Translations under genes and position numbers: made by a program
The notes under the pieces: generated by a model
What the model saw: only the letters and a program-made list of their open reading frames with translations
What the model was told of the DNA's origin: nothing
Database searches by the model: none
Shown: positions 3,001 through 49,400 of the stretch, one piece after another
How the letters are laid out: each line of letters begins with the position of its first letter
Numbering within the stretch: position 1 is the stretch's first letter
Assembly (NCBI GenBank): GCA_947044365.1
Contig: OX345647.1
Coordinates: 2,414,001-2,478,000, forward strand
Source of the DNA: Petrosia ficiformis
Taxonomy: Eukaryota; Porifera; Demospongiae; Haplosclerida; Petrosiidae
Length of the DNA stretch: 64,000 nt
Direction of reading: 5' to 3'

Positions 3001-6000
3001 ATAAACTATAACTTCTGAATAACATTGTGAGTTATAATTATTGATCTGTGATGTAAGTCATGATTACTATTATATACATGTATTGTGTATTGCTCATCAG
3101 CTATTGCAATATTTAAGCTTGAAAATTCACAAAACACAAGCAAATTAAATATGCAGCAAATTACCATCCTACAGTAAAAAATTACTTTAAAATATCAAAA
3201 AATCAACATGTATCTTCATGATCTACTATGTGATAAGTCTACATGTATCTTCATGATCTACTATGTGGTAAGTCTACATGTATCTTCAGGATCTACTATG
3301 TGGTAAGTCTACATGCATCTTCATGATCTACTATGTGGTAAGTCTACATGTATCTTCATGATATACTATTTCGTAAGTCTACATGTATCTTCAGGATCTA
3401 CTATGTGATAAGTCTACATGTATCTTCATGATCTACTATGTGGTAAGTCTACATGTATCTTCAGGATCTACTATGTGGTAAGTCTACATGTATCTTCATG
3501 ATTTACTATGTGGTAAGTCTACATGTATCTTCATGATCTACTATGTGGTAAGTCTACATGTATCTTCAGGATCTACTATGTGGTAAGTCTACATGCATCT
3601 TCATGATCTACTATGTGGTAAGTCTACATGTATCTTCATGATATACTACATGTATCTTCAGGATCTACTATGTGGTAAGTCTACATGTATCTTCAGGATC
3701 TACTATGTGGTAAGTCTACATGTATCTTTATGATATACTATTTGGTAAGTCTACATGTATCTTCATGATCTACTTGTGGTAAGCCTACATGTATCTTCAT
3801 GATCTACTATGTGGTAAGTCTACATGTATCTTCATGATCTACTATGTGGTAAGTCTACATGTATCTTCAGGATCTACTATGTGGTAAGTCTACATTTATT
3901 TTGATTCCACTTGAATGTTGAAAAATATTATGCCCAATAAGGAAGGAAACTTAGCAATGGTATGTACATGTAATACATGTAAATACATGTAAATACATGT
4001 AAATACATGTAAATACATGTACATGTATGTTTGCTTTCTAAGAATTTGGATAAAGATGCGGCAATTTGTTTGCACACAAAAGTTAACCATAATTACTTAA
4101 TGAAAATATATTCTTGATGTAGCTATATATTATACAGCACAACACTACTCCATCAGGCAAAGTAATTTGGACCAAAACAATTAGAGCTAATGACTAATCT
4201 ATCTGTTTTATAAACCATTATCACTTTTGTAGAACTCTGCTATCAACACTTGTAATATTTTCAGGATTTTAATTTCGCTTTGTAGAGCTCTGTAATAGTG
4301 ATAGCAGTGGTGTGGAAACAGCCAGTTATGCAGGGCAGGACATTATCTAATAATCTAGTGAATGTTCAGTTAAATTGAAACTGAGCTGTATACAAAGTAT
4401 ATAGGGAACAGGACTAGAGTGGTGAAAATAGGCCAGAATGTCCAGCAATTGGGGTCACTATTCCCACACTCCTGATTGATAGTAGTCTATAAAACATAGT
4501 CATTAGTACTATTACAATTCCAACTAAAACAATTGGCACATTTCATAAATGTACATGTACACAACTTACCCCTCCTCAAGAAGCTGTTCTGTCTGTATCT
4601 CATCATAACCCTATAATCAAATTAAATTGAACATCAAAACATCACAAGTCATGCTGTATACATGTATGTACTTGTAAATATCATGAAGTATAAAAGATTC
4701 GGTCCTTTCAACAGAATTTGCATATAGCATATAGTTATTACTTGTCTCACCCAACAACACCCACAAAAACATGTGTGCATTCCATCTCTTTGCAAGTACA
4801 TTACAGCAATGCCTTTGTCTCTCATGTCTACATCTCATAATTCATAACAATGAATTGTATGTAATCAATCTTGAGTCTAACTAGCTGATATTTGAATCAG
4901 TATCTACACTTACTGTTCTACTCAAGCTACAGTGGCTTAGCGGTTAAGAGTATCTGACTGGGATCATGGAATCCTGGGTTCTGATATACACATACATGTA
5001 TATTGAGGTTTTCATTAACTGTGAGTACCTCACTGGGAATCATGGTATCCTAGGTTCTGATATAATGAGGTTTTCATTCTCCTTTTCTATATGTATTAGT
5101 TATAGCTTTATGACATAATAGCTTTCACTAATATATCTCCTTGTGGTTGTAACTGACATAAACTGGACATTATTCTTCATACATGTGCATTCTACATTTC
5201 TAATTATTACCTGTTCTTCAGATTCTAAAGTATATTCTTCAGCCAGACTAGTAAGATTTGGAGGAGTATTCCTTTCATCACTGCCCTCATCCACATGGTA
5301 TTCAGGTGAATCAAGACGTTGGATACCTGGCGTAGTACCAATCAAATCCTCTACAAGGAATAAAATACCATACCACATCTTCAAATATACCATTGATTGT
5401 ATAAGAAGGACAAACAAACATAGCCAAATGAAGATTCGGGGACCCCATTACCTGGACAACTCTGAACTCTAGGAACAGTATATAAGCTAACAGAACATGT
5501 CTAAATGGTTCCTTATATATAAGTGTTGTTTAAAACTAAAAGTATTATAGTACATCATTTTTACTTTTAGTTCTTGAACCAAAACTAAAATGTTTTAGTG
5601 GCAGGTGAACTACATGTAAGTAACTAACTAATACTAAAAGTATTTTAAGAACTTGGAACTAATTTATAACTAGAACTAAAAGCATTTTATTGTACCAAAA
5701 CAACACCAGTATCTTATAAATCATTTAAGTGCAGAATGTATAACTAACGTTAATAATTACTGTACCAAAACAACACCAGTTCCTTATAACACATTTAAAA
5801 GCAGAAGAAATAATAAATAAAACAGAAAGAAAACATACCATCATCTTCAGAAAAGGCTCTTGCACGAGATCTCCTTGGAACAACTGGTTGAAGACGTCTT
5901 TTCTTCTCTGAGTTTTGCTTACTTGTAGAAGTGAAATCATTAAACCCAGGTACTCTTTTATCACCAGAAGATCCAGCTATATCGTCACCCAGGTTTCTAT

Positions 6001-29034: not shown

Positions 29035-30060
29035 TTAACCTTTTGAATGGTGAGCATGTTTTTGGCAACGCTTCCCATTTCCAAAACTGTGGGCTCTGCT
29101 GCAGATATGTCGGCCATTGTTCACTTTCTGTACCCCAAACTTGGCTCCTTTCCCGACCTGGAGTGCTACTTCTAGCACCAGAGATTCATTGAACTAAATC
29201 ATATGCAGTGTTCTCAGCTACCCACCAGATTGCATCGGAGGGGTCACTGAAATCCCAAATTTTGTGGGTGGTGAGGAGGCTGCTCCCCCTTCGAACCCTC
29301 GTTAACGAGGAGACACTCCTTTAAGGTGGTACTAGGGAGTGGGCGGATGCGACTCCAATCAGTTTCAAAATAGAATATTATATAATATGACTCTAACCTG
29401 GTGTAATGGCAACCTTCATATCTTCTAATCACCTTTATAGGGTCCTGGAATTGATAAAACATATATAAAATGTCCATTTTTGTAATCGCAATAAGTACAA
29501 AACGGAGAAAGCCACGCCCACCAATCATGGCGTGCACCAAGTACAATGCATTTAGAGAAAACAAATAGAGCCATTTTCTGGAAATTCATTTTACTTTTAT
29601 AGTTACAAAAGGCTGAAGAAAGCTGAATTCTGTAGCTTTTCACTGAAACCATAAAATCTACCTTTCTAGGCACTATCAAACTCCGATCTTTCTCAGAGAG
29701 CAACTACAGTTATTGTTTCCCACCCACCGCCCCCTCCACCACCCGTGGGGCGTGTTTAGGTTTGTTTCTGAAAATAAACTATCAGTCAAAACATTTAGGC
29801 CCAATAATTATACCCCCGGGTGGGTGTGGCTTCCAAAAAATACAGAATGGAACCAGATTGTATGCAAGACTAGAAACTGATTGGAGTAGCATCCGCCCAC
29901 GGAAAAGACTACAACCTTAAAATCCCTCCATAATATATTTAGGGTAAAGTGCAGCAGAAAAACCATCAACGTTTTTAGGCATTTTCTTGTGCTTATGACT
30001 GAAACCAATTGCAAACATTTGGAGTGCTTTGTAACACTATGAACACACTCCTTAGTGCAA
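29035..30060 (+). repeat. Dispersed repeat family 3, interrupted copy
   Basis: The left part (29035-29320) and right part (29921-30045) align in order with 20995-21490. They are split by the 592-bp element at 29325-29916. The right part retains AAACATTTGGAGTGCT. Confidence 0.65.
29325..29916 (+). mobile_element. TTAA-target element nested in repeat family 3
   Basis: Flanked on both sides by TTAA (29321-29324 and 29917-29920). The termini are inverted: GGTGGTACTAGGGAGTGGGC, then GCGACTCCAATCAGTTTC on the left, and GAAACTGATTGGAGTAGCAT, then CCGCCCACGG...CTACAACC on the right. The paralogous repeat at 21371 has a single TTAA, the empty site. piggyBac-type transposases use TTAA. The internal minus-strand ORFs show no transposase signature. 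Confidence 0.7.
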
Positions 30061-30216
30061 ATACACAAATATGTGACATCAGCACTCTAAGCAAGGATTA
30101 CACTTAGGGTTATAGTTTAGGGGATAGGGTTTATAAATCATGTTACCTTGGACACTCAGCAGTTATTGCTTTGACTTTCCCGTCTAACAGGTTACCTCAT
30201 TTCGGAAGAAAAAAAA

Positions 30217-30314
30217 TTACTTTGCTCTACTCATGATAGCTTCATCCTGCGGAGTAGTGCGGACACATTGAACTTGTAGATGCTTTTATACAAGCTGGAA
30301 TACATGAATCTAAC
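30217..30314 (+). pseudogene. Decayed ankyrin-coding remnant upstream of the 2A gene
   Basis: CTACTCATGATAGCTTCATC at about 30224 is identical to coding sequence near 36150 of the downstream ankyrin gene. With a short insertion it continues as ATTGAACTTGTAGATGC (IELVDAFIQAGIHESN), the second half of an ankyrin repeat. The frame runs directly into the ATG at 30315. Confidence 0.5.
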
Positions 30315-33300
30315 ATGGCAACACTGCTATCTGTCATGATTGATCTATGTCAATGGAGGGCTAGCATTGGTCTATGGAACTGTTGTAAATGGCCATGTTG
30401 TACTGGAAATAGCAGTACACTGAAAGGAGGATGGGTCCTAGGACGATCAAAAGAGAAGAAAAAAAAACCAACCTTTTCTCTTATCTTGTTCCTGTCTGTT
30501 CTTCTTATTCTAGCAGGTGATGTGGAACTTAATCCTGGACCAGTAACAGGTAATCATATTGAAAATCTTTCCTTAATATACATATCCATTTTATTTGTAA
30601 CAAATAGGCACCAGTTTAATCACAAAAGTGTTATTGAAAGTGCTTGATGCTACCTTGAGTCTTGCTTTACGTTTCTGTCTTGAAGATGTTGCTAAAGACA
30701 TGTTCTCTAAAGGATTGATCTCAGAGTCAACTATCACTTCACCAAATTATAATACCGTGATTAGTGAATTCAAAACAGTAATGAGAACGAAAGAAGACAC
30801 ACCTCAGTTGGAGAAACATTGCCAATTGTTCCTGACTTGCCTGTCTAGCCAAAGTGGACCAGCTGAAGCAGTTGCTGAAAACTTAGCTGAACAATGGAGG
30901 GAGGAAGTACAAAAAGAGTTGAGTATCTCGCTCTCACTTGATGTTGTCATACTAGATGAAGATGGGAAACAAATGGATAGTGAATTAGTAGAGGCTAATA
31001 CTGAAATGACTGAACACTTCACTACAGATGAAACAGAACACCTGGAGAGTCTTGATATTCATGACCATTTCAATGAATTATTAAGACAATTTAAACATGA
31101 ACTCCATGGCAAATTAGCAAAGGGAGAAGAAAAGCTTTCCGATATTACAGACTTTGTACAACAACTTGTATCTACAGAAGATTTGTGTGATGTTGAACAT
31201 TTAGATGAAGTGCTGAAGAAACTCGACTCTTACTACAATTTCTTAGATTGTCAAAACATCATTCTTTTTGCAACAAGATTTGCCTCACCTGCTCTTTTGC
31301 AAAAATTTGAAAACCATTCAAAAGAAGCGGAATCATTTTGTAGAACTTACACTATTAAGATACTTCAAAAATGTTTTGATGTAAATTTTGACACTCACCA
31401 AATCTATGCATCTATTAGTCTTAACATTGCCTGGAGTAATGTAATTATTGACAGACTATACATGCTTATCAAAAATTTCTCTGTCAAACATGGAAGCCAT
31501 TTTGTACTAAAGCATATTAAGGTGACTGAGTCATCAGTCCATATTGAGTACTTCATGAGAGACTCTTCACTGAAAATACAAGAAATTATTGCGCATGCTC
31601 AAGAAAAGGTTTCCTTGATGTGGTTCATTGGTATCTATGAATTCAGTATTAATGGACATACAATTCTACAAGTTGACAATGAAGAGAACTTCACATTTGA
31701 GTTAGCTCTTCTCAAAGCAGCAAGCACAGGTCATATTGAAGCAGTTCAGTTACTACTTGATTTAACAGATAACACTGAACACTGCAATGAAGAAGGAACA
31801 ACACCCTTAATGTTAGCTAGTGAGGGTGGATATGAACCAGTTGTTAAGTCACTACTATTAGCTGGAGCTAATGTTAATAGTCAAAATAATGATGGATGGA
31901 CAGCACTAATGGAAGCAAGCAAGTATAATCATATCACAATAATCCACACTCTACTTGAAGTTGGTGCTGATCCACATCTACAGATTTCAGATGGACGTAA
32001 TGCCTTAATGATTGCTAGTATTAATGGTCATCATCAGGTTGTTCAGCAATTATTGAGAAAAAATGTTGACTATAATTGTCAACAAAAGCGTGGAATTACT
32101 GCTTTGATGTATTCCAGTATAAAGGGGCATTGTGAAGTTGTTGAACTATTACTTAATGCACAAGCTGATCCTAACATTCAAGGTAGAGTTGGATGGACTG
32201 CACTGATGTTAGCCTGCTTAAAAGGCCATATTAAAGTTGTTGAACAGCTACTCAATAAAGAAGCTGATCCCAATATTCAAAATACAAGTGGACAAACTGC
32301 ACTAAGATTTGCTAATCAAAGTGGCCATTTTCAAGTTGTTGAGCTGTTACTTAAACAACATGCTAATCCTAATGTTCGAGACACGAATGCTGGATGTACT
32401 GAACTACATTTTGCTGTACTTGGTTCGTCAAAAATGAACAATAAATCTGGCTTCCTATTTACAGAAATGACTGGTACTATTCAAGATTACATTAAAATAG
32501 TACAGTTACTGATAGGTCACTCTAGTATTGACATTGATGCAGTGACTGATGAAAGTTTCACAAGTCTTATGTTTGCTAGTATGTATGGCTGTACAGAAGT
32601 AGTTGAGCTATTGTTAGAGGCTGGAGCTAATCCAAATATACCGATTAAGACATCCACAACCATGAAGGACATTAATGGATGTACTGCTCTTATGCTAGCC
32701 TGTCAGCATGGCTATTCCGAAATTGCTGAATTGTTACTCATTAAAGAAGCTGATCCTAACATTGAAAATACAAGTGGACAAACTGCACTAAGATTAGCTA
32801 ATCAAAGTGGCCATTTTCAAGTTGTTGAGCTGTTACTTAAACAACATGCTAATCCTAATGTTCGAGACACAAATGCTGGATGTACTGAACTACATTTTGC
32901 TGTATTTGGTTCGTCAAAAATGAACAATAAATCTGGCTTCCTATTTACAGAAATGACTGGTACTATTCAAGATTACATTAAAATAGTACAGTTACTGATA
33001 GGTCACTCTAGTATTGACATTGATGTAGTGACTGATGAAGGTCTTATGTTTGCTAGTATGTATGGCTGTACAGAAGTAGTTGAGCTATTGTTAAAGGCTG
33101 GAGCCAATCCAGATGTACAGATTAAGACATCTACAACAATGAAGGACATGATAATGTCCGACGAAACAGACATACTACTTCAACCACAAGTCAAATCATT
33201 TCTTTTACCAAATTTTTCTCTATTAAAAGGAATGTCCGTTCATGGTTGGACTGCTCTAATGTTTGCCAGTTGGAAAGGTCGTTCGGACATTGTTCAGATA

Positions 33301-36300
33301 TTATTACGAGCTAGGGCTAAACCTGATCTACGGGCTGAAACTGGTGACACTGCTTTATTATGTGCAGCAATGAAAGGACTTTCTGATATTGTACAACAAC
33401 TCCTTGAGTGTGGTGCTAATCCAAATATCAGTAACAGAGATGGCAGAACTTCGCTAAATGTAGCTGTAGTTTGTTTATCAATACAGCAAAAGAAATTAAA
33501 GCTTGTCCCAACAATCTCAAAGGAATTTGAAATAGTTGATCCGCCTGGTAGTTATGAGGATTATCACCAAATACTACAACTACTAATAGCTCAGCCAAAT
33601 GTTGATATTCTAGTGAATGCAAATTTAAGTGGATACACAAGTCTTCACATAGCCAGTATGTGTGGTTGCACAGATGCAGTTGAACTATTACTACGGGTTA
33701 GTGCTGATCCAAACATACAGTCTCATAAGGTTGAAACATCAAATAATCTGTCAATTTTACCAAGTAACATATTGCTACAACCACAACTCAAAACATTCTT
33801 TTTACTGAGTGACTTTCAAACAATCTCTGGGTTCACTGCTCTAATGTTTGCAAGTGGTAATGGTCACTTAGAAATTGTCCAGTTGTTGTTAAAAGCAAAG
33901 GCTAAACCTGATCTACAGACGGAAAATGGAGAAACTGCTTTGTATCTAGCAGTAATGAAAGGACATCCTGATATTGTACAGCTACTACTGGAATATGGCG
34001 CTGATCCAAATATCTGTAACATACATGGCAGAACAGCAATTCATGCTGCTACCTATTGTGCTGGCTTAGCAATTACAACAGCAAGGGGAGGGATTGCATA
34101 TGGTAGCATACTTACAACAATAACTTCTGGTACATATGAACATCATCTCAAAACTATGAAGTTGCTAATAGCTCAGCCAAATATTAAAATCAATGAAACT
34201 ATTGATGGAGTTACAACTCTTATGACAGCCAGTAGTTTTGGAAATGAACAAATTGTCGAACTATTACTACAAGCTGGTGCTGATCCCAACATGTCAATTA
34301 AAACATCTATGGATAAATTTATCTTAGCAAAAACTAAAATTCTCTTTAGCAATCAATATCCAACTTTATTTGGAAATGAAATGATTGGATGGACTGCCTT
34401 GATGCTAGCCTGTAAAGGTGGTCATTTGGAGGTTGTAAAATTGGTATTAAAAGCGAAAGCAAACCCTGATCATCAAATGGAGGCTAAGGGGATTACTGCT
34501 TTAATAATTGCAGTACAAAAGGGGTTCTCAGACATTGTACAACAGCTACTTGAGTATGGTGCTGACCCTAATATTGGTGATAGAAGGGGTTCTACAGCAA
34601 TTCATTCTGCAGTGGGACCAAATGATTCACAGTCAAACCCTTCAAACAGAGATGAAAATTTTACAAGAGCATCACAGAAACTGGAAATTATTCAACTGCT
34701 AATTGAAAGCGGTGTCAATTTGAACATCCAAAATATAGCTGGAATTTCACCGCTGATGATGGCCTGTATGGACAGTTGCAGTAATTCTACACATGTGGTT
34801 GAACTACTGCTAAAAAATGAAGCTGATCCAAACATACAAACTACTGGTACTAAAATGATTGGATTAACTGCCCTAATGTTTGCTTGTGTAGTAAGTAATG
34901 TAGAGGTCATAAAATTGCTTTTAAAAGCAAAAGCAAACCCAAATCAACAGCAAACTGATGGAATGACAGCTTTAATGTTTGAAGCGAAACAGGGACATCC
35001 ACACATTGTACAACAACTACTTGAGTATGGTGCTGACCCTAATATCAGTGATAGAAGTGGTCGTACAGCAATTCATTATATTATGATGTTATATGATAGA
35101 CAGCCAAGCAAAATGATGTCTGACAAATTGGAAATACTTCAATTGCTTATTGCAAGAGGGATTAATCTCAATATTAAGGATAGAAATGGAAAGACAGCTT
35201 TAATGGCAGCCAGCTTTTTTAGGTTTACAGAGGCAGTAAAACTATTACTACAAAATGGTGCTGATCCAAATATAGAGCAACATAAACCTGTAAATATAAC
35301 TTCAAGCTTGCCTAAAACGATTAGATTTACTGCCTTGATATATGCCACTGGTGAACGAATGAATGGAGAGGTTGTCAAATTGCTATTAAAAGCTAATGCA
35401 AATCCTAACCAAGAAAATGCGCTTGCTTTAATGATTGCAGCACAGCAAGGCTATCCAGACATTGTACAACAATTGCTCAAGTATGGTGCTGATCCTAACA
35501 GCATCAGTGATATAGATGGTTCTACAGCACTTCATTGTGTTTTAGAGTCACAGAAAGAAACTCCACACAAAGACAACAAAGAAAAGATTTCCAATCAATT
35601 GGCAATTATTCAACAACTTATTGAAAGCGGTGCCGATATTATTAACATTCAAAATGAAGATGGAATGACAGCCCTGATGATGGCCACTGATGAAGGTCTC
35701 TCAGAGATTGTTGAATTATTACTTCAGAATGGAGCTGACCCTAATGTCCATTGCCATAAAGGATGGACTGCCCTCATGTATGCCTGCAGTCATGGCAACT
35801 CTGAAGTAGTTGAAAGTCTGCTAAAGTTCATTGCTAATCCTCTGTTAGTTGATAATGATGGATTCACAGCCTCAATACATGCACTGTGTAGTGGTTATAA
35901 AGATCTTGGCTATAAACTTGTTAATGACAGGGATTTCAGTCAAAATGAACTCAAATGTTTATTAATAATGGATTTACTAGAAGGGAATCAAATAGAAGCT
36001 ATTTCAAGGCTGGATGAAATCACTGACCTTACTACAGAGAAGAAGGAACTCATGATTTCTTGTGTTGTAGGTTCTTTGGAAGATGTAGTTGGTAAACTAC
36101 ATGAATCAGACCTTCATCCTGATACTACTCTAGTAGGTGGTCTTACTCTACTCATGATAGCTTCATCCCGTGGGCATATTGAACTAGTAGAATATCTCGT
36201 AATAATTGAGGCTAATATCAATCATAGAGACATGTTTTGGAAATATACTCCTATATTCTATGCGATATTGGGAAGTGGATTAAATGAGTTGGTGGAGTTC

Positions 36301-36576
36301 CTACTAGAGAATGGCGCAGATATTAATGCTGTCGCTGGCAAGCAAACTCCACTGGATTTGGCTAATTCCGGTTCAGTGGATAATCAGATTAGCAGTTTGT
36401 TGCTTAAAAATGGAGGTCAAACTTTTGCGGAGTTGATAGTTGATATTCAGCCACCAATAAAAACGTCTCCAAATTTGGTTGAATTTTCAGATCAAGTTAA
36501 ATCGCTAATCCAAGACACAGTAGTAAAAGGAGAACATACAGAATACACACACACATATATAACTACATATACTTAA
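30315..36576 (+). CDS. Large ankyrin-repeat protein with N-terminal 2A-like recoding motif (2 exons, 2067 aa)
   Basis: Exons 30315-30549 and 30608-36576; the junction codon GGC is split 1/2 and the frame stays open for 2067 residues. Residues 53-67 are hydrophobic after a KEKKKK stretch, and residues 69-76 are DVELNPGP, the 2A consensus. Ribosomes would skip between Gly75 and Pro76, giving a 75-aa leader and a 1992-aa ankyrin protein. Residues 80-440 are helical, with an unnamed region (LDSYYNFLD..., then HVVLKHIKV-like VLKHIKVTESSVHIEYF). Residues 440-2012 hold about 37 ankyrin repeats, mostly G-x-TALMxA...VVELLL...GADPN. From repeat 8 on, every fourth repeat bears a long insert, giving a four-repeat higher-order unit. 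No NACHT, kinase or membrane segment is seen. The start is provisional: ATG 30315 is the first in-frame Met and Met8 is the alternative. Confidence 0.85.
30519..30542 (+). promoter_or_regulatory. 2A-like translational recoding site (DVELNPGP)
   Basis: The codons GAT GTG GAA CTT AAT CCT GGA CCA encode D-V-E-L-N-P-G-P, matching D-(V/I)-E-x-N-P-G-P exactly. The preceding residues LSVLLILAG give the leucine-rich helical context that active 2A peptides need. The predicted break is between 30539 and 30540. The upstream pyrimidine-rich DNA ending TCTAGCAG also looks like a splice acceptor, so a cDNA is needed to exclude an in-frame intron there. Confidence 0.75.
32280..33150 (+). repeat. Recent ~470-bp tandem duplication inside the ankyrin gene
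   Basis: 32285-32670 and 32759-33145 are almost identical, sharing long runs such as GTTCGTCAAAAATGAACAAT and the residues SKMNNKSGFLFTEMTGTIQD. The second copy lacks 12 bases (SFTS), which removes part of one ankyrin repeat. The frame is preserved. Confidence 0.85.
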
Positions 36577-40400: not shown

Positions 40401-43400
40401 CCAGCAATTAAACACTATAATTATCACAATGTTATCATAATATTAATGGCTGTAATACGCTTTAGTATTTTTGGATATCACATATCTTAGTCCCACTTAG
40501 TTTGCATTGGGATGTAACATAGAATTTAATTGATTCTATAATGTTCTTACCCACAAAAGCAATGTTGGAACTTCGAGAGGTTTAAAAGGACCAGGTGTTC
40601 GTTCACCAATATTAAACACATTACGATGGTAATTGATAGTTGGAGTAAGGGCACCTTTCTGACTGAAGGTATATTTGAAAGCTTCCAAAACATCATCAGA
40701 GAAGTTATTCAAATTACGAACACCCTATATCAAAAATCATGATAACATTTATAAATATAACACAAAATTTACACACAGCTCAGAACTGCTTGAAGGCTAC
40801 ATAGAAACTGGAACTAATAGCTGTTTGAACCGAAATATAATTATGGTCTGTAGGGCCATTACTTTCCACAGGGTTTAATGTGTATTATCTTCTTGAGTCA
40901 GTATGTGTTGTATATGTAGTTAAGGAAGTCGTGTTATTCTGGGGCTAGGTCAATTAATGGGCATGGTGTGTAAATCCACACGCGGTTGAGCTATAGAACA
41001 GCAGGAAGATTAAGTAAAACTAATACTAATAACTGTTATATATAGCAGAGAAAGAGTATAAAGATGATGCAAGAAACTTTAACAAGTAAGTATAATAAGT
41101 TGTTGAGGGCATGAGAAAGTCATCATTTAGAACTTTGAAGATCTGTGTACTTACACACATGTAGATGCCGTCAGTTTCAATTATGTATTCGGGTCCCAGT
41201 TTCAATTTTGTAGTTAAGTTATAGTTATAGTTAAATTCACTCATCACTGTAGTTAAGTTATAGTTATAGTTAAATTCACTCATCACTGTAGTTAAGTTAT
41301 AGTTATAGTTAAATTCACTCATCACTGTAGTTAAGTTATAGTTATAGTTAAATTCACTCATCACTGTAGTTAAGTTATAGTTATAGTTAAATTCACTCAT
41401 CATTGTAGTTAAGTTATAGTTATAGTTATAGTTAAATTCACTCATCATTGTAGTTAAGTTATAGTTATAGTTAAATTCACTCATCATTGTAGTTAAGTTA
41501 TAGTTATAGTTAAATTCACTCATCATTGTTAAATTCACTCATCATTGTAGTTAAGTTATAGTTATAGTTAAATTCACTCATCATTGTAGTTAAGTTATAG
41601 TATAGTTAAATTCACTCATCATTGTAGTAGTAAGTTATAGCAGGAGCCTATAATGATGTTGACCAGAAAGTGTGAGAGTAGGAGCGGCAAATGACCACAC
41701 ATTTAAATAAATTGGTCAAACTATCTGTCTGACCATCTGTTACTATTTTTAGAACCCACGTGTATATGCCTTCGTTAAATTCGGCTTCTAAAAAATGAAT
41801 AGCTACTATATACTACATTGACTAAGTTTCCTGTAAAACAGAGAAAAGAATTGAGCGATATTCTGGCTTGTGTAAACTGTGAAGATGTTCTTAGTGAAGC
41901 CATTGACAAAGTAGTAAAAAGCCATCACTGCTCAATGACAGAAGGCAATGATGTCAAACACTATTGCATAGGACTAAATAGTTATTTTTCGGCTTCCCCA
42001 AAGCATGCTCTTACTTTCCTAATAGTAGGTGACTCCATTTCTGCCTCCAGACGTGTTTGTTTCATAGCTAACCTTGAGGATCGTTGAGGTGTAGACACCA
42101 TATTTAACAAAGGCATAATTATACACGTGGGTTCTAAAAATAGTAACAGATGGTCAGACAGATAGTTTGACCAATTTAATTAAATGCGTGGTCGTTTGCC
42201 GCTCCTACTCTTATGCTTTCTGGTTAATGTTATTATGGGCTCCTGATTATAGTCAATTCACTCATCACTGTAGTTAAGTTATAAATTCACTAGATTATCA
42301 ACATTCATTACACTTACTGAAGTTTTGCCCCTATACATCGCTTTGAACATTCCAAAGTCCCTCAAAGACAGAATACATTCAGGTAACCAAGGTGTTTGAA
42401 ACATGAATATATACTGGAGGAAGAAATAAATCATAACTAGATCACAAAGACTATAATAAAAGTTTGGTATTAATTTATGATTAAATTTAAATATTCTGCT
42501 ACTACACAAATAACCATCTGGACACACTACAGTGGAACCCATCTTATCCAAATGGCGGGCACCTCCTTCTACCAGGCAGAAAAAAACAAAAAAAAAAAAT
42601 TTAAAAAATTAAGAGGCATGTTCACATGCATATGCTCACTCGTTACGTGATCAACATACGTGGAATTATGTTCAGCTACTTTCAAAGTTACTGTCAGTTT
42701 CAAAGATATGGGCACCTCTTCATCCCACACTGCCCAGGTAAGAGGGGTTCCACTGTATTTGTATAACCCTTGATTCTAGGGTAATAAGTTATTGAACCTA
42801 GGGTATATGAATTATGAATGGTGTGGTTAATCACATAATATTTTAAATAGTTGCAACCATACAATAGTTTGTTATTCTATCTAGTGTGTCCACTTTACTC
42901 CTTAGTACCTGTAAAAAGTAGCTGCTTATCATGTGACCAACCAACTGAACCAATAATCAATTATGTTTTGGGACATAATCAACAATTGAATTTCTGGTGA
43001 GTAGTTATTTATACTATGTTCCCAGCTCTATTACAATCACGATGTTGAGGTACATGTAAGTACATGTAGCAGACAGGGTTTCACAAAGTGGGGGGAGATC
43101 AAATTTATTTCAACACGCAACATCTTAGTTACAAGCCTTCTGGGCCACAGAAACAACCTCAGAGGGCCTAAAATTTAAAGTTTTATTGGGGGAACATACC
43201 CCCATACCCCTCAGGAGCAGTGTACTTTGCATGATCCATTCTTTCAGCCTCTTCACAAAAACTCCTGTATGAAACCTTGGCAAAGGGATTGCACTTTCTT
43301 TAGGGAGGTATCTCAGGTCTACCTCTCCATATGAAACCCTCTGCAGTGTAAATCTTCTCAGAAGAAAATCATAATAAATATAAAATTGAAGTTGCTAACC

Positions 43401-46400: not shown

Positions 46401-49400
46401 TGATGCTTCTGGAATGATACTATACCACTGTAAGGGACATTTGTATAAACCACAGCCTTCATGCTATTGGTGTTACACAAATACTTTGAGCAGGAGTGCC
46501 AACTGCCAAGATGCAATCTCAAAGTTTAAACAATTCTTAAAAGAAATAACAGAAACTCTGCTTGATAAATGACACAAGATCCTGATCAGGATGAAGTAAT
46601 ATCTAAATATTCTAAGTTCTACCATGAAAGACTACAATTTGGTTTATTTGAACTCAAAAAGTAGAAAACCATCATCTCATCAAATCCTTTGTCTGACAGC
46701 ATAATGACCTCATCCTTGTCAGTCGATAAAATGAACTATCCATCATCAACTGGTAAAATTACCTCTACATAAGTTGGTACTTCTTTCTACTCTGCCTCTT
46801 ATCTATAATTTCAGAACTGCACAATCAATATAACTATCTCTGAAGGTCAATTCCAGAACAACTTTCCTACAATATGTTCTACCAAAAGTTTTACTGATAC
46901 CTAATTCAACAACTGTTGTTAGTGTGAATAGTACTCCTGATTGTGATGAGCAATGTTTGGATGACCTATTCAGTTTCCCTTTTATGAAATCATCTTGAAT
47001 GTTCAAGGCAATGTGACCTTACCATTAGAACATCTACATGTGTTCAAGGCAATGTGACCTTACCATTAGAACATCTACATGTGTTCAAGGCAATGTGACC
47101 TTACCATTAGAACATCTACATGTGTTCAAGGCAATGTGACCTTACCAATAGAACATCTACATGTGTTCAAGGCAATGTGACCTTACCATTAGAACATCTA
47201 CATGTGTTCAAGGCAATGTGACATTACCATTAGAACATCTACATGTGTTCAAGGCAATGTGACATTACCATTAGAACATCTATGTGTAAACATTCAAGTT
47301 TTCACACGATACTATTGTTGAATGGATTTCAGTAACGGTTTGTTTGAATTGTTGTTATTTGGAAAAACATTTCGGGAGTGATATTAATTATTTATAAAAG
47401 TATTGTCAATCATGTTTAATACTCAACAGATATAAAGTATTGTAGTTTGTAACGGACACAAGTTTCTGTTATTGCATATGTGCAAAACATATTGATACAT
47501 GAAAATAGCACTAGTGACATAACTCAAACATGTAATTTATAAAATAGAGATGGAAGCAGAGTTTTTGATAACTTTTGAAGCTTGAGTCAAATTGGCTCAA
47601 AAATGGTTAGTGTGTGCGCCATTGAGAATACATCTTGAGCCAATTAACAAACAGTTAATGCTGTTAGTGACAATATAATCATAATTAACTGCACCACTGG
47701 CCCAAAGAGAGAACTGTGCAGTGCCAAATAAGAAGCTCTTTGGGCCAATGGTGCACCATATGAGCTTATCAAAAACACTGATGGAAGATACGAACTAGCA
47801 CACAGCAGGTAGTTCAATTATACTTGGAGTGCTGTGTCTACTTTGTACAACAAGGCTTATCACAATGTTGGCCTGTTTTTGTTGTAATGAATACAAAAGC
47901 ACAGAAAATACCAATAGACTATAAATTGCATTACAAGAAGTGTAGTTGCTACCTACTGAATAGTTAACCAAATAGCCTACTACAAGCAGTGTTCTCAATA
48001 GGAAATTAAAGTGGCATGATGATGTTAGATCTACATACATCTATATTAGGGATATTTTCCTTTACTTTTGAATTCAAAATAAATTGCCTCACAAGTACAG
48101 CTGTGTAGCATCATACTAACAGACCAGGGTAAAACTATTATTCATACATCTGTAGAACATATTTTGACATGAAAACCTGATATTTACATAATACGTAATG
48201 TTAGAACTAACAAGTCGTAAGTAACAAACTCTAGTTAATAAAATACACTTAATTTTCAATTACCTCATGTCTACAGCTACAACATGATAATCAGTACAGA
48301 ATTCTCTCAACTGATAACGCCAGGAAAACCAAAACTAAATAAAAAACAGAAGACGTCGAGATATATATTATTACATAATAATCAGTGCTTCATCCAGTGG
48401 TTAGGGAGAGGAAAGAGCGAATGATGCGAATTGGGGTATGCTCCTTTAGGAAATGTTTAACATTTAGGCCATCTGAGGAATACTCTACCCCACTGTATGA
48501 AACCATGATAATTACAGTGAAACCCCTCTATTGAGGACACCCTGAAATGAGGACACCCCTGTATCAAGGACACTTACAAATGTCCCAAAGTGTGCTTTAT
48601 AATATAAATTTACCCGAAATGAGGACACCCCTGTATTCAGGACACTTATATTTGTCCCAATGCTGTCCACAATAGAGAGTTTCCACTGTATATACATTAT
48701 ACATTACATATATACTACATGTACATGTAACACTGTATATAATATAATTTTTTTGATCACAGCTTCCAAGATCAAGTTTTGATTAATTGTTGCAGTGCCA
48801 TACACACACTCACTATCCTTTTATTCATTTTCTATCACAATTCAAAATCAATTTAATGAAAAGGGCCTAAGATATATCTGTGTAAAAGTTTCAATGTGCT
48901 GAGATTTGAAGCAGCATTACTACGCTATAAGGCTACAGTGACCAGCTGATTTAAGTAGATTTAGGTTCAAATGTGAGAAACCAAATACAGAATAATTATC
49001 ATTATAATGGACATATGAATACATTATATATGAATACATTGTAGGATTTGTATCCACACTCCATTATACATTTGTGCAATCAAAACAGGGGCTGATATAA
49101 ATCTTACTATGTAAACTATGGATTATATATATAGACACTACTGGGCATGGCTAGGATAAACATAATATATACATCTACCTCAGGGAATCCATGTAGGAAT
49201 AACATCAGAGGTTTGGTTTTATCACCAGCTGTGACATAATGGAACTTTATACCATTAGCAGTGACATATTCATGTGCACCCAGTGAAGGGTCAATCAGAC
49301 ATGCTGGAGGAACTGGATAAAATATAAACAACAGATAGTTAAGACAATTTCAAGAGAAAATCTAATAATGATATACCATAATTATAGTGGTTTTATTTGG

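What the first reader, a model, noticed from the sequence alone, without database searches (positions are those of the whole stretch)
30519..30542. 2A-like ribosome-skipping motif at the N-terminus of a giant ankyrin protein
The eight residues match the 2A consensus exactly and sit right after a short hydrophobic, leucine-rich stretch that could act both as 2A upstream context and as a signal sequence. If active, one mRNA yields a 75-aa leader and a free cytosolic ankyrin protein starting with proline; when skipping fails, the intact chain could be sent to the secretory pathway. 2A-like motifs at N-termini of immune-type proteins and non-LTR retroelements are known in some invertebrates, so dual targeting of a recognition protein here is plausible.
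Basis: partly seen in the sequence, partly recalled or inferred. Interest (0 to 1): 0.88.

Follow-up and report, generated by a model that had tools for sequence, protein, structure and literature searches.

The report
Transposon-like ribosome-skipping leader on immune-type genes
In what is probably a sponge genome, a giant ankyrin-repeat gene appears to begin with a short leader ending in an exact copy of the viral "2A" ribosome-skipping motif, which is predicted to split the new protein in two as it is made; leaders of the same plan lie upstream of many immune-receptor-type (NLR) genes and open a Helitron transposon protein, although such skipping is described as rare in cellular genes.

Summary
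The motif is real: window 30519-30542 reads DVELNPGP. It is not chance: 205 genomic 2A patterns against 0 reversed. Of 103 scored NACHT domains, 67 have a 2A within 6 kb upstream on the same strand, 1 downstream, 0 on the opposite strand. Leaders read from the ankyrin family, NLR-type families and a Helitron share one plan: MI-x3-QWR-x2-IG, linker, hydrophobic run, 2A; immune-type copies then show a splice donor. Eight transposon-like 2A loci of non-LTR type lack QWR. Leader codons look constrained (uncorrected pN/pS 0.30-0.44). Best reading: a StopGo first exon shared with Helitrons, predicted to release a hydrophobic peptide and a Pro-initiated cytosolic protein. No transcript or skipping assay was available; this copy's 5' flank is rearranged, so its own expression is uncertain.

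The parts
30336..30549 (+). leader exon: conserved start MIDLCQWR to a phase-1 splice donor (71 codons plus 1 base); exon ends inferred
   Evidence: ATG present in 13 of 13 aligned full family copies
30351..30371 (+). QWRASIG, the QWRxxIG signature shared with NLR-type leaders and a Helitron
30471..30518 (+). hydrophobic run TFSLILFLSVLLILAG; L-rich upstream context of the 2A
   Evidence: class described in PMC12846837
30519..30542 (+). 2A/StopGo octapeptide DVELNPGP; predicted skip between G (30537-30539) and P (30540-30542)
30550..30607 (+). inferred phase-1 intron (58 bp, GT..AG)
   Evidence: in 11 of 11 close copies examined (window included; sites located by motif) donor, acceptor and frame are kept while length varies from 49 to 71; the two most divergent full copies (L020, L021) were not examined
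30608..36576 (+). exon 2: N-terminal region plus ankyrin repeats (ORF from its first ATG, 30700, is 1,958 aa)
   Evidence: (PF00023 E=3e-233, 24 stretches)
30610..30930 (+). N-terminal helical domain of exon 2; predicted fold most like CARD/PYD, inconclusive

Best explanation
This is a leader exon ending in an exact 2A (StopGo) motif, spliced in the inferred gene model to a giant ankyrin gene, and it is predicted to make the ribosome skip the Gly-Pro bond so that a 68-aa leader peptide and a separate 1,992-aa ankyrin protein starting with proline would come from one mRNA. It is one member of a genome-wide cassette (MI-x3-QWR-x2-IG, linker, hydrophobic run, (A/S/C)G, D(V/I)ExNPGP, phase-1 donor) that also lies upstream of many NACHT (NLR-type) genes; the same leader without the intron opens a Helitron transposon protein. 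Likely mechanism: the hydrophobic run and DVELNPG act in the ribosome exit tunnel, the leader is released, and the receptor-type protein is made in the cytosol without its leader or an initiator Met; a small unskipped fraction would keep a membrane-seeking N-terminus. Shown: motif, frame, conservation, genome-wide distribution and shared leader plan. Inferred: splicing, skipping, product localisation, and a single common origin, most likely with a Helitron as donor.
For: Exact octapeptide in frame. 205 genomic 2A patterns against 0 reversed (full list). QWRxxIG pattern 215 against 10 reversed; on contigs C1+C2, 53 of 81 QWR sites have a 2A 141-237 nt downstream on the same strand, 49 of the 53 in frame. 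67 of 103 scored NACHT domains (all over Pfam's cut-off) have a 2A within 6 kb upstream on the same strand, 1 downstream, 0 on the opposite strand. NACHT matches downstream of family B (L025), C-like (L072) and E (L070) leaders. Helitron_like_N + PIF1 + OTU in the 2,232-aa ORF of L074, which opens with the same leader plan. Among 44 distinct QWR-2A leaders in hand, 43 start with M five residues before QWR, 44 have I next, 43 end in (A/S/C)G before the 2A. Leader pN/pS 0.364, 0.304, 0.440 in families A, B, C. Intron sites and frame kept in 11 of 11 close copies examined. The upstream hexapeptide LLILAG fits the L-rich motifs ending (A/S/C)G before D; representatives of motifs 1, 3, 4 and 6 (6 being L-rich) were all active in vitro (PMC12846837 section 10).
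Against: No transcript, ribosome profile or skipping assay. In family A1 the 2A codons show no synonymous change either (10 distinct leaders), so constraint on the octapeptide cannot be separated from recency or gene conversion there. The window copy's 5' flank differs from the other copies and carries an ankyrin-like fragment and an interspersed repeat, so its expression is uncertain. 28 of 81 QWR sites on C1+C2 lack a 2A at the exact pattern; of seven of these fetched, five were printed and show stops before any 2A (four) or a degenerate NVEFNPGH (one); two had a stop within 25 residues of QWR and were filtered out. 36 of the 103 NACHT domains have no 2A within 6 kb upstream, and only the 103 best of 249 candidates were scored. 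Leader families D and F (6 and 5 sites) have no scored NACHT within 15 kb. Exon 2 of three C2 copies stops early in the fetched stretch. The direction of transfer between Helitron and immune-type genes is not resolved.
Confidence: 0.72

Rival explanations
1. Dual-targeting signal sequence: skipping gives a cytosolic ankyrin protein, failed skipping sends the intact chain into the secretory pathway, and this partition is the selected function.
For: Precedent in sea urchin NLRs, where a 26-aa 2A-like sequence does both (PMC4981915, abstract and Results part 1 read). The hydrophobic run has mean Kyte-Doolittle 2.5 over 17 residues and varies less than the linker (pN 0.037 against 0.097).
Against: The run lies at residues 46-61 behind a long Cys/Lys-rich segment, not at the N-terminus as in the sea urchin. 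The same plan with a more hydrophobic run (2.9) is on a Helitron replicase. L-rich runs are themselves a StopGo context class. No signal-peptide predictor was available.
Confidence: 0.25
2. The leader is not used in the window gene: translation starts inside exon 2, or an acceptor just before the motif (TTCTAGCAG) replaces the leader.
For: A pyrimidine-rich tract and AG precede the motif, and a CAG stands at that place in the 6 of 6 family A and B leaders sampled. None of the 19 related proteins found in the database contains the 2A or QWR; most begin near the start of exon 2, though these look like ORF-based gene calls (inferred). The 5' flank is rearranged.
Against: The leader reading frame is constrained. 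Donor, acceptor and frame are kept in 11 of 11 close copies examined. The AG is absent at that place in the 7 of 7 family C-F leaders sampled. The window's first ATG in exon 2 (30700) is 92 nt into the exon, which would remove a conserved start of that exon.
Confidence: 0.12
3. The 2A leaders beside NLR and ankyrin genes are remnants of Helitron insertions, not part of those genes.
For: A Helitron with the same leader is present in the genome, and other loci look alike.
Against: Orientation is 67 upstream against 1 downstream and 0 opposite. Immune-type leaders carry a splice donor where Helitron-type ones carry zinc-finger codons. Purifying selection within families. The two types differ consistently: 36 of 36 immune-type leaders read MI(D/N) and W two residues after G, 8 of 8 Helitron-type read I(S/A/T) and IGCF (sorted by residue 3).
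Confidence: 0.05

Closest known systems
Sea urchin SpNLR2A leaders (Roulston et al. 2016, PMC4981915; abstract, Results part 1 and passages read)
   Same: 2A motif at the N-terminus of NLR-type immune proteins after a hydrophobic stretch; about 80% skipping (their qualitative estimate) for one
   Different: There 26 aa, in 14 of 87 NLR entries. Here 69-88 residues through the 2A in 36 distinct immune-type leaders, with a conserved MI-x3-QWR-x2-IG start, on an ankyrin family as well, upstream of 67 of 103 scored NACHT domains, and shared with a Helitron
2A in non-LTR retrotransposons (Odon et al. 2013; paper not held; known here through citing texts)
   Same: 2A before a cysteine finger and an endonuclease domain is also present in this genome (L083)
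   Different: Eight such 2A loci read here have no QWRxxIG on either strand of the 2 kb fetched and continue into coding sequence without a splice donor; only L083 and L084 gave endonuclease matches, the rest are typed by eye
Viral StopGo/2A with L-rich upstream motif (Li et al. 2026, PMC12846837; abstract, section 10 and passages read)
   Same: Octapeptide and (A/S/C)G-D context
   Different: Those lie within virus ORFs; the paper says StopGo is used only rarely in cellular genes (passage)
Helitron rolling-circle transposons
   Same: L074 has Helitron_like_N, PIF1 and OTU domains
   Different: A 2A leader on a Helitron: my library searches found no paper holding Helitron with '2A-like' or with StopGo

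Membership tests
2A/StopGo recoding element | core octapeptide D(V/I)ExNPGP in frame | tested here: met
2A/StopGo recoding element | suitable upstream context (one of the described classes) | tested here: met
   LLILAG before D fits the L-rich class by eye; no motif scoring was run
2A/StopGo recoding element | skipping activity with two products | not testable with these tools
   needs in vitro translation
Sea-urchin-type dual-targeting 2A signal sequence | N-terminal 2A preceded by a hydrophobic segment | tested here: met
   but the segment starts at residue 46
Sea-urchin-type dual-targeting 2A signal sequence | unskipped form enters the exocytic pathway | not testable with these tools
   needs a cell assay
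Helitron (for the mobile element carrying the leader, not for the window gene) | Helitron_like_N (Rep) plus PIF1 helicase | tested here: met
   one element (L074) tested in this genome
Helitron (for the mobile element carrying the leader, not for the window gene) | TC...CTRR termini with 3' hairpin (recalled) | not tested
   termini not mapped
NLR (for leader families B, C, E elsewhere in the genome) | NACHT domain downstream of the leader | tested here: met
NLR (for the window gene) | NACHT domain | tested here: not met
   ankyrin-repeat families only
CARD/death-fold domain at the N-terminus of the window protein | death-fold six-helix bundle | tested here: inconclusive

The most novel reading that the evidence does not exclude
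A StopGo first exon carried by Helitron transposons was captured once and then shuffled onto most of an animal's NLR repertoire and onto its giant ankyrin genes, so that one transposon-derived ribosome-skipping leader now strips itself from a whole class of immune receptors during translation.
Probability: 0.45. Interest if true: 0.88.

Novelty: new variant of a known kind. Interest (0 to 1): 0.8.

Why it matters
StopGo is described as only rarely used by cellular genes (PMC12846837, passage). Here it would be a standard first exon on dozens of immune-type receptors, and the same leader sits on a Helitron. That makes two questions testable: whether animals use ribosome skipping to set the location or dose of receptors, and whether transposons supplied the switch. 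The QWR signature also gives a search handle for other genomes.

Full report
Observation. Window 30519-30542 encodes DVELNPGP in the frame that opens with MIDLCQWRASIGLW at ATG 30336. Unspliced, the leader frame ends after 103 codons; an inferred 58-bp GT..AG phase-1 intron (30550-30607) joins it to an exon that runs open to 36576, giving a 2,060-aa protein with the 2A at residues 62-69. The ORF counted from the first ATG of exon 2 (30700) is 1,958 aa and matches only ankyrin-repeat families in Pfam.

More than chance. D[VIM]E.NPGP patterns occur 205 times in the 191-Mb genome, 0 times for the reversed pattern (expected about 0.06 at the window's base composition). The complete list is 66 + 87 + 52. 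A leader search found 136 matches at E<=1. The window's leader family (A) accounts for 14 of the 205 sites: seven clustered on C11 plus two others there, three on C2, one on C1 and the window's on C12; in one C11 copy the leader is split by an insertion.

What else carries it. Downstream of a family B leader (C3) is a NACHT domain (L025, E=6e-23); downstream of a family C-like leader a Death domain and a NACHT domain (L072, E=2e-6 and 2e-23); L052 (family C) has a Death match at E=4e-4, below its cut-off; family E (L070) has NACHT at E=1e-25 and a weak Death match (E=0.02); family D (L069) only a weak Death match (E=0.003). Family F (L071) was read by eye only. Of 103 scored NACHT domains (of 249 first-look candidates), 67 have a 2A within 6 kb upstream on the same strand, median 2,407 nt; 1 has one downstream and 0 on the opposite strand; 36 have none upstream. 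By 2A spelling, the 67 fall mainly in families E (29 of 38 sites of its commonest spelling), B (19 of 32) and C (12 of 16); family A and the Helitron-type spellings have 0, and families D and F have none within 15 kb. I read leader sequences for a sample of these, not for all 67. A 2,232-aa ORF with the same leader plan has Helitron_like_N, PIF1 and OTU domains (L074). Several other loci continue after the 2A into a similar cysteine finger and repeats, but were not domain-tested. Eight further 2A loci look like non-LTR elements (L076-L081, L083, L084) and have no QWRxxIG in the 2 kb fetched; L083 and L084 gave endonuclease matches, L084 below cut-off.

Shared plan. The 44 distinct leaders with both QWR and an in-frame 2A read MI-x3-QWR-x2-(I, twice V or S)-G (43 start with M, one with V; I second in 44), then a linker, a hydrophobic run and (A/S/C)G in 43, and are 61-88 residues long through the 2A. 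The sample was picked by QWR, so QWR itself is not a result there; the test of association is the genome-wide pattern: on C1+C2, 53 of 81 QWRxxIG sites have a 2A 141-237 nt downstream on the same strand (49 in frame), and 53 of 86 2A sites have a QWR. The other 33 include non-LTR-type elements, a transposon-like group of 14 identical sites, and leaders with a variant signature such as QWRASVG. Of the 28 QWR sites without the exact 2A pattern I fetched seven; the five printed show stops before any 2A (four) or a degenerate NVEFNPGH (one), and the other two had an early stop. Sorted by residue 3, 36 of 36 immune-type leaders read MI(D/N) with W two residues after G; 8 of 8 Helitron-type read I(S/A/T) with IGCF; two further Helitron-type loci with a changed signature (L045, L051) were left out by the QWR..IG filter. 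Immune-type leaders end in a phase-1 donor where Helitron-type ones continue into coding sequence. The consistent difference suggests one transfer event, direction unknown. In the public protein set, 7 of 93 returned proteins hold a 2A octapeptide and 1 also QWR, far apart; two (P0026, P0030) join 2A and a PHD finger to Helitron domains, by eye like the 2A-finger start of the non-LTR locus L083, so Helitrons seem to exchange 2A modules.

Selection. Uncorrected pN/pS is 0.364 (family A, 12 distinct of 13 loci), 0.304 (B, 16 loci), 0.440 (C, 8 distinct of 9). Within the 10 distinct 69-codon leaders of A1, pN is 0.019 in residues 1-20, 0.097 in the linker and 0.037 in the hydrophobic run, with pS 0.079, 0.175 and 0.192; the 2A itself shows no change of either kind. 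Copies are related and may exchange sequence, so these are descriptive. In 11 of 11 close copies (window included; sites located by motif) donor, acceptor and frame are kept while intron length varies from 49 to 71 bp; exon 2 of the other ten compared with the window gives pN/pS 0.36-0.60, seven stay open through the 466 codons fetched and three C2 copies stop early.

Mechanism. The upstream hexapeptide LLILAG fits the L-rich class of StopGo contexts that end in (A/S/C)G before D; representatives of four classes, among them one L-rich motif, were all active in vitro in the cited work (PMC12846837 section 10). I infer efficient skipping: a 68-aa leader ending DVELNPG, and a 1,992-aa protein starting PVTG. 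Dual targeting as in sea urchin NLRs (PMC4981915) is possible, but the hydrophobic run starts at residue 46, and the same plan with a more hydrophobic run is on a Helitron replicase/helicase, so the run is more simply read as StopGo context, with membrane seeking as a side effect. The released leader may itself have a role; nothing here tests that.

Caveats. The window copy's 5' flank is rearranged: positions 29951-30091 are an interspersed repeat (39 other matches listed, 40 of 1,156 candidates scored), an ankyrin-like fragment precedes the leader, and about 28 nt shared before the ATG by most of the other copies (by eye) are not conserved here. Expression of this copy is therefore uncertain.

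Literature. Searches for '2A-like' with sponge and NLR (one paper, unrelated), with NACHT (three papers: the sea urchin one and two that by title are on other subjects), with Helitron (none), StopGo with Helitron (none), 2A-like/ankyrin/ribosome skipping (12 of 60 listed), StopGo or skipping with sponge terms (25 of 1,442 listed, none of the 25 holding both kinds of term) and Helitron with 2A peptide or self-cleaving (10 of 1,144 listed, none of the 10 holding Helitron) showed no report of this. A 2026 sponge NLR paper (PMC12909245: outline with abstract, one section and a term search) does not contain '2A-like', '2A peptide' or 'skipping' in its main text. The library lacks most subscription papers.

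Noticed in passing
window 29951-30091: Interspersed repeat with 39 other matches listed (40 of 1,156 first-look candidates scored), about 250 bp upstream of the leader ATG.
   Followed up: partly
window 30258-30314: Ankyrin-like fragment in frame directly upstream of the leader, not seen in the other aligned copies; sign of a rearranged 5' flank.
   Followed up: partly
G000:C11:5316371-5317142: A copy of the leader split by an insertion of roughly half a kilobase between its N-terminal part and the 2A.
   Followed up: no
L075 and 14 further sites with the same 23 bases; 9 of the 15 lie within 2 Mb of the ends of C1: A group of 15 identical DIEQNPGP sites followed, in the one copy read, by a CxxC-type finger, with no QWR leader; element type not determined.
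   Followed up: partly
P0026, P0030: Database proteins that join a 2A plus PHD finger, as in non-LTR retrotransposons, to Helitron domains.
   Followed up: yes
L083, L084: Non-LTR-type elements with 2A directly before a cysteine-rich finger (PHD-type in L083, just below cut-off) and an endonuclease match.
   Followed up: partly
window 3206-3899, 41208-41640 and 47000-47282: Large tandem arrays with units of 35, 39 and 41 bp.
   Followed up: no
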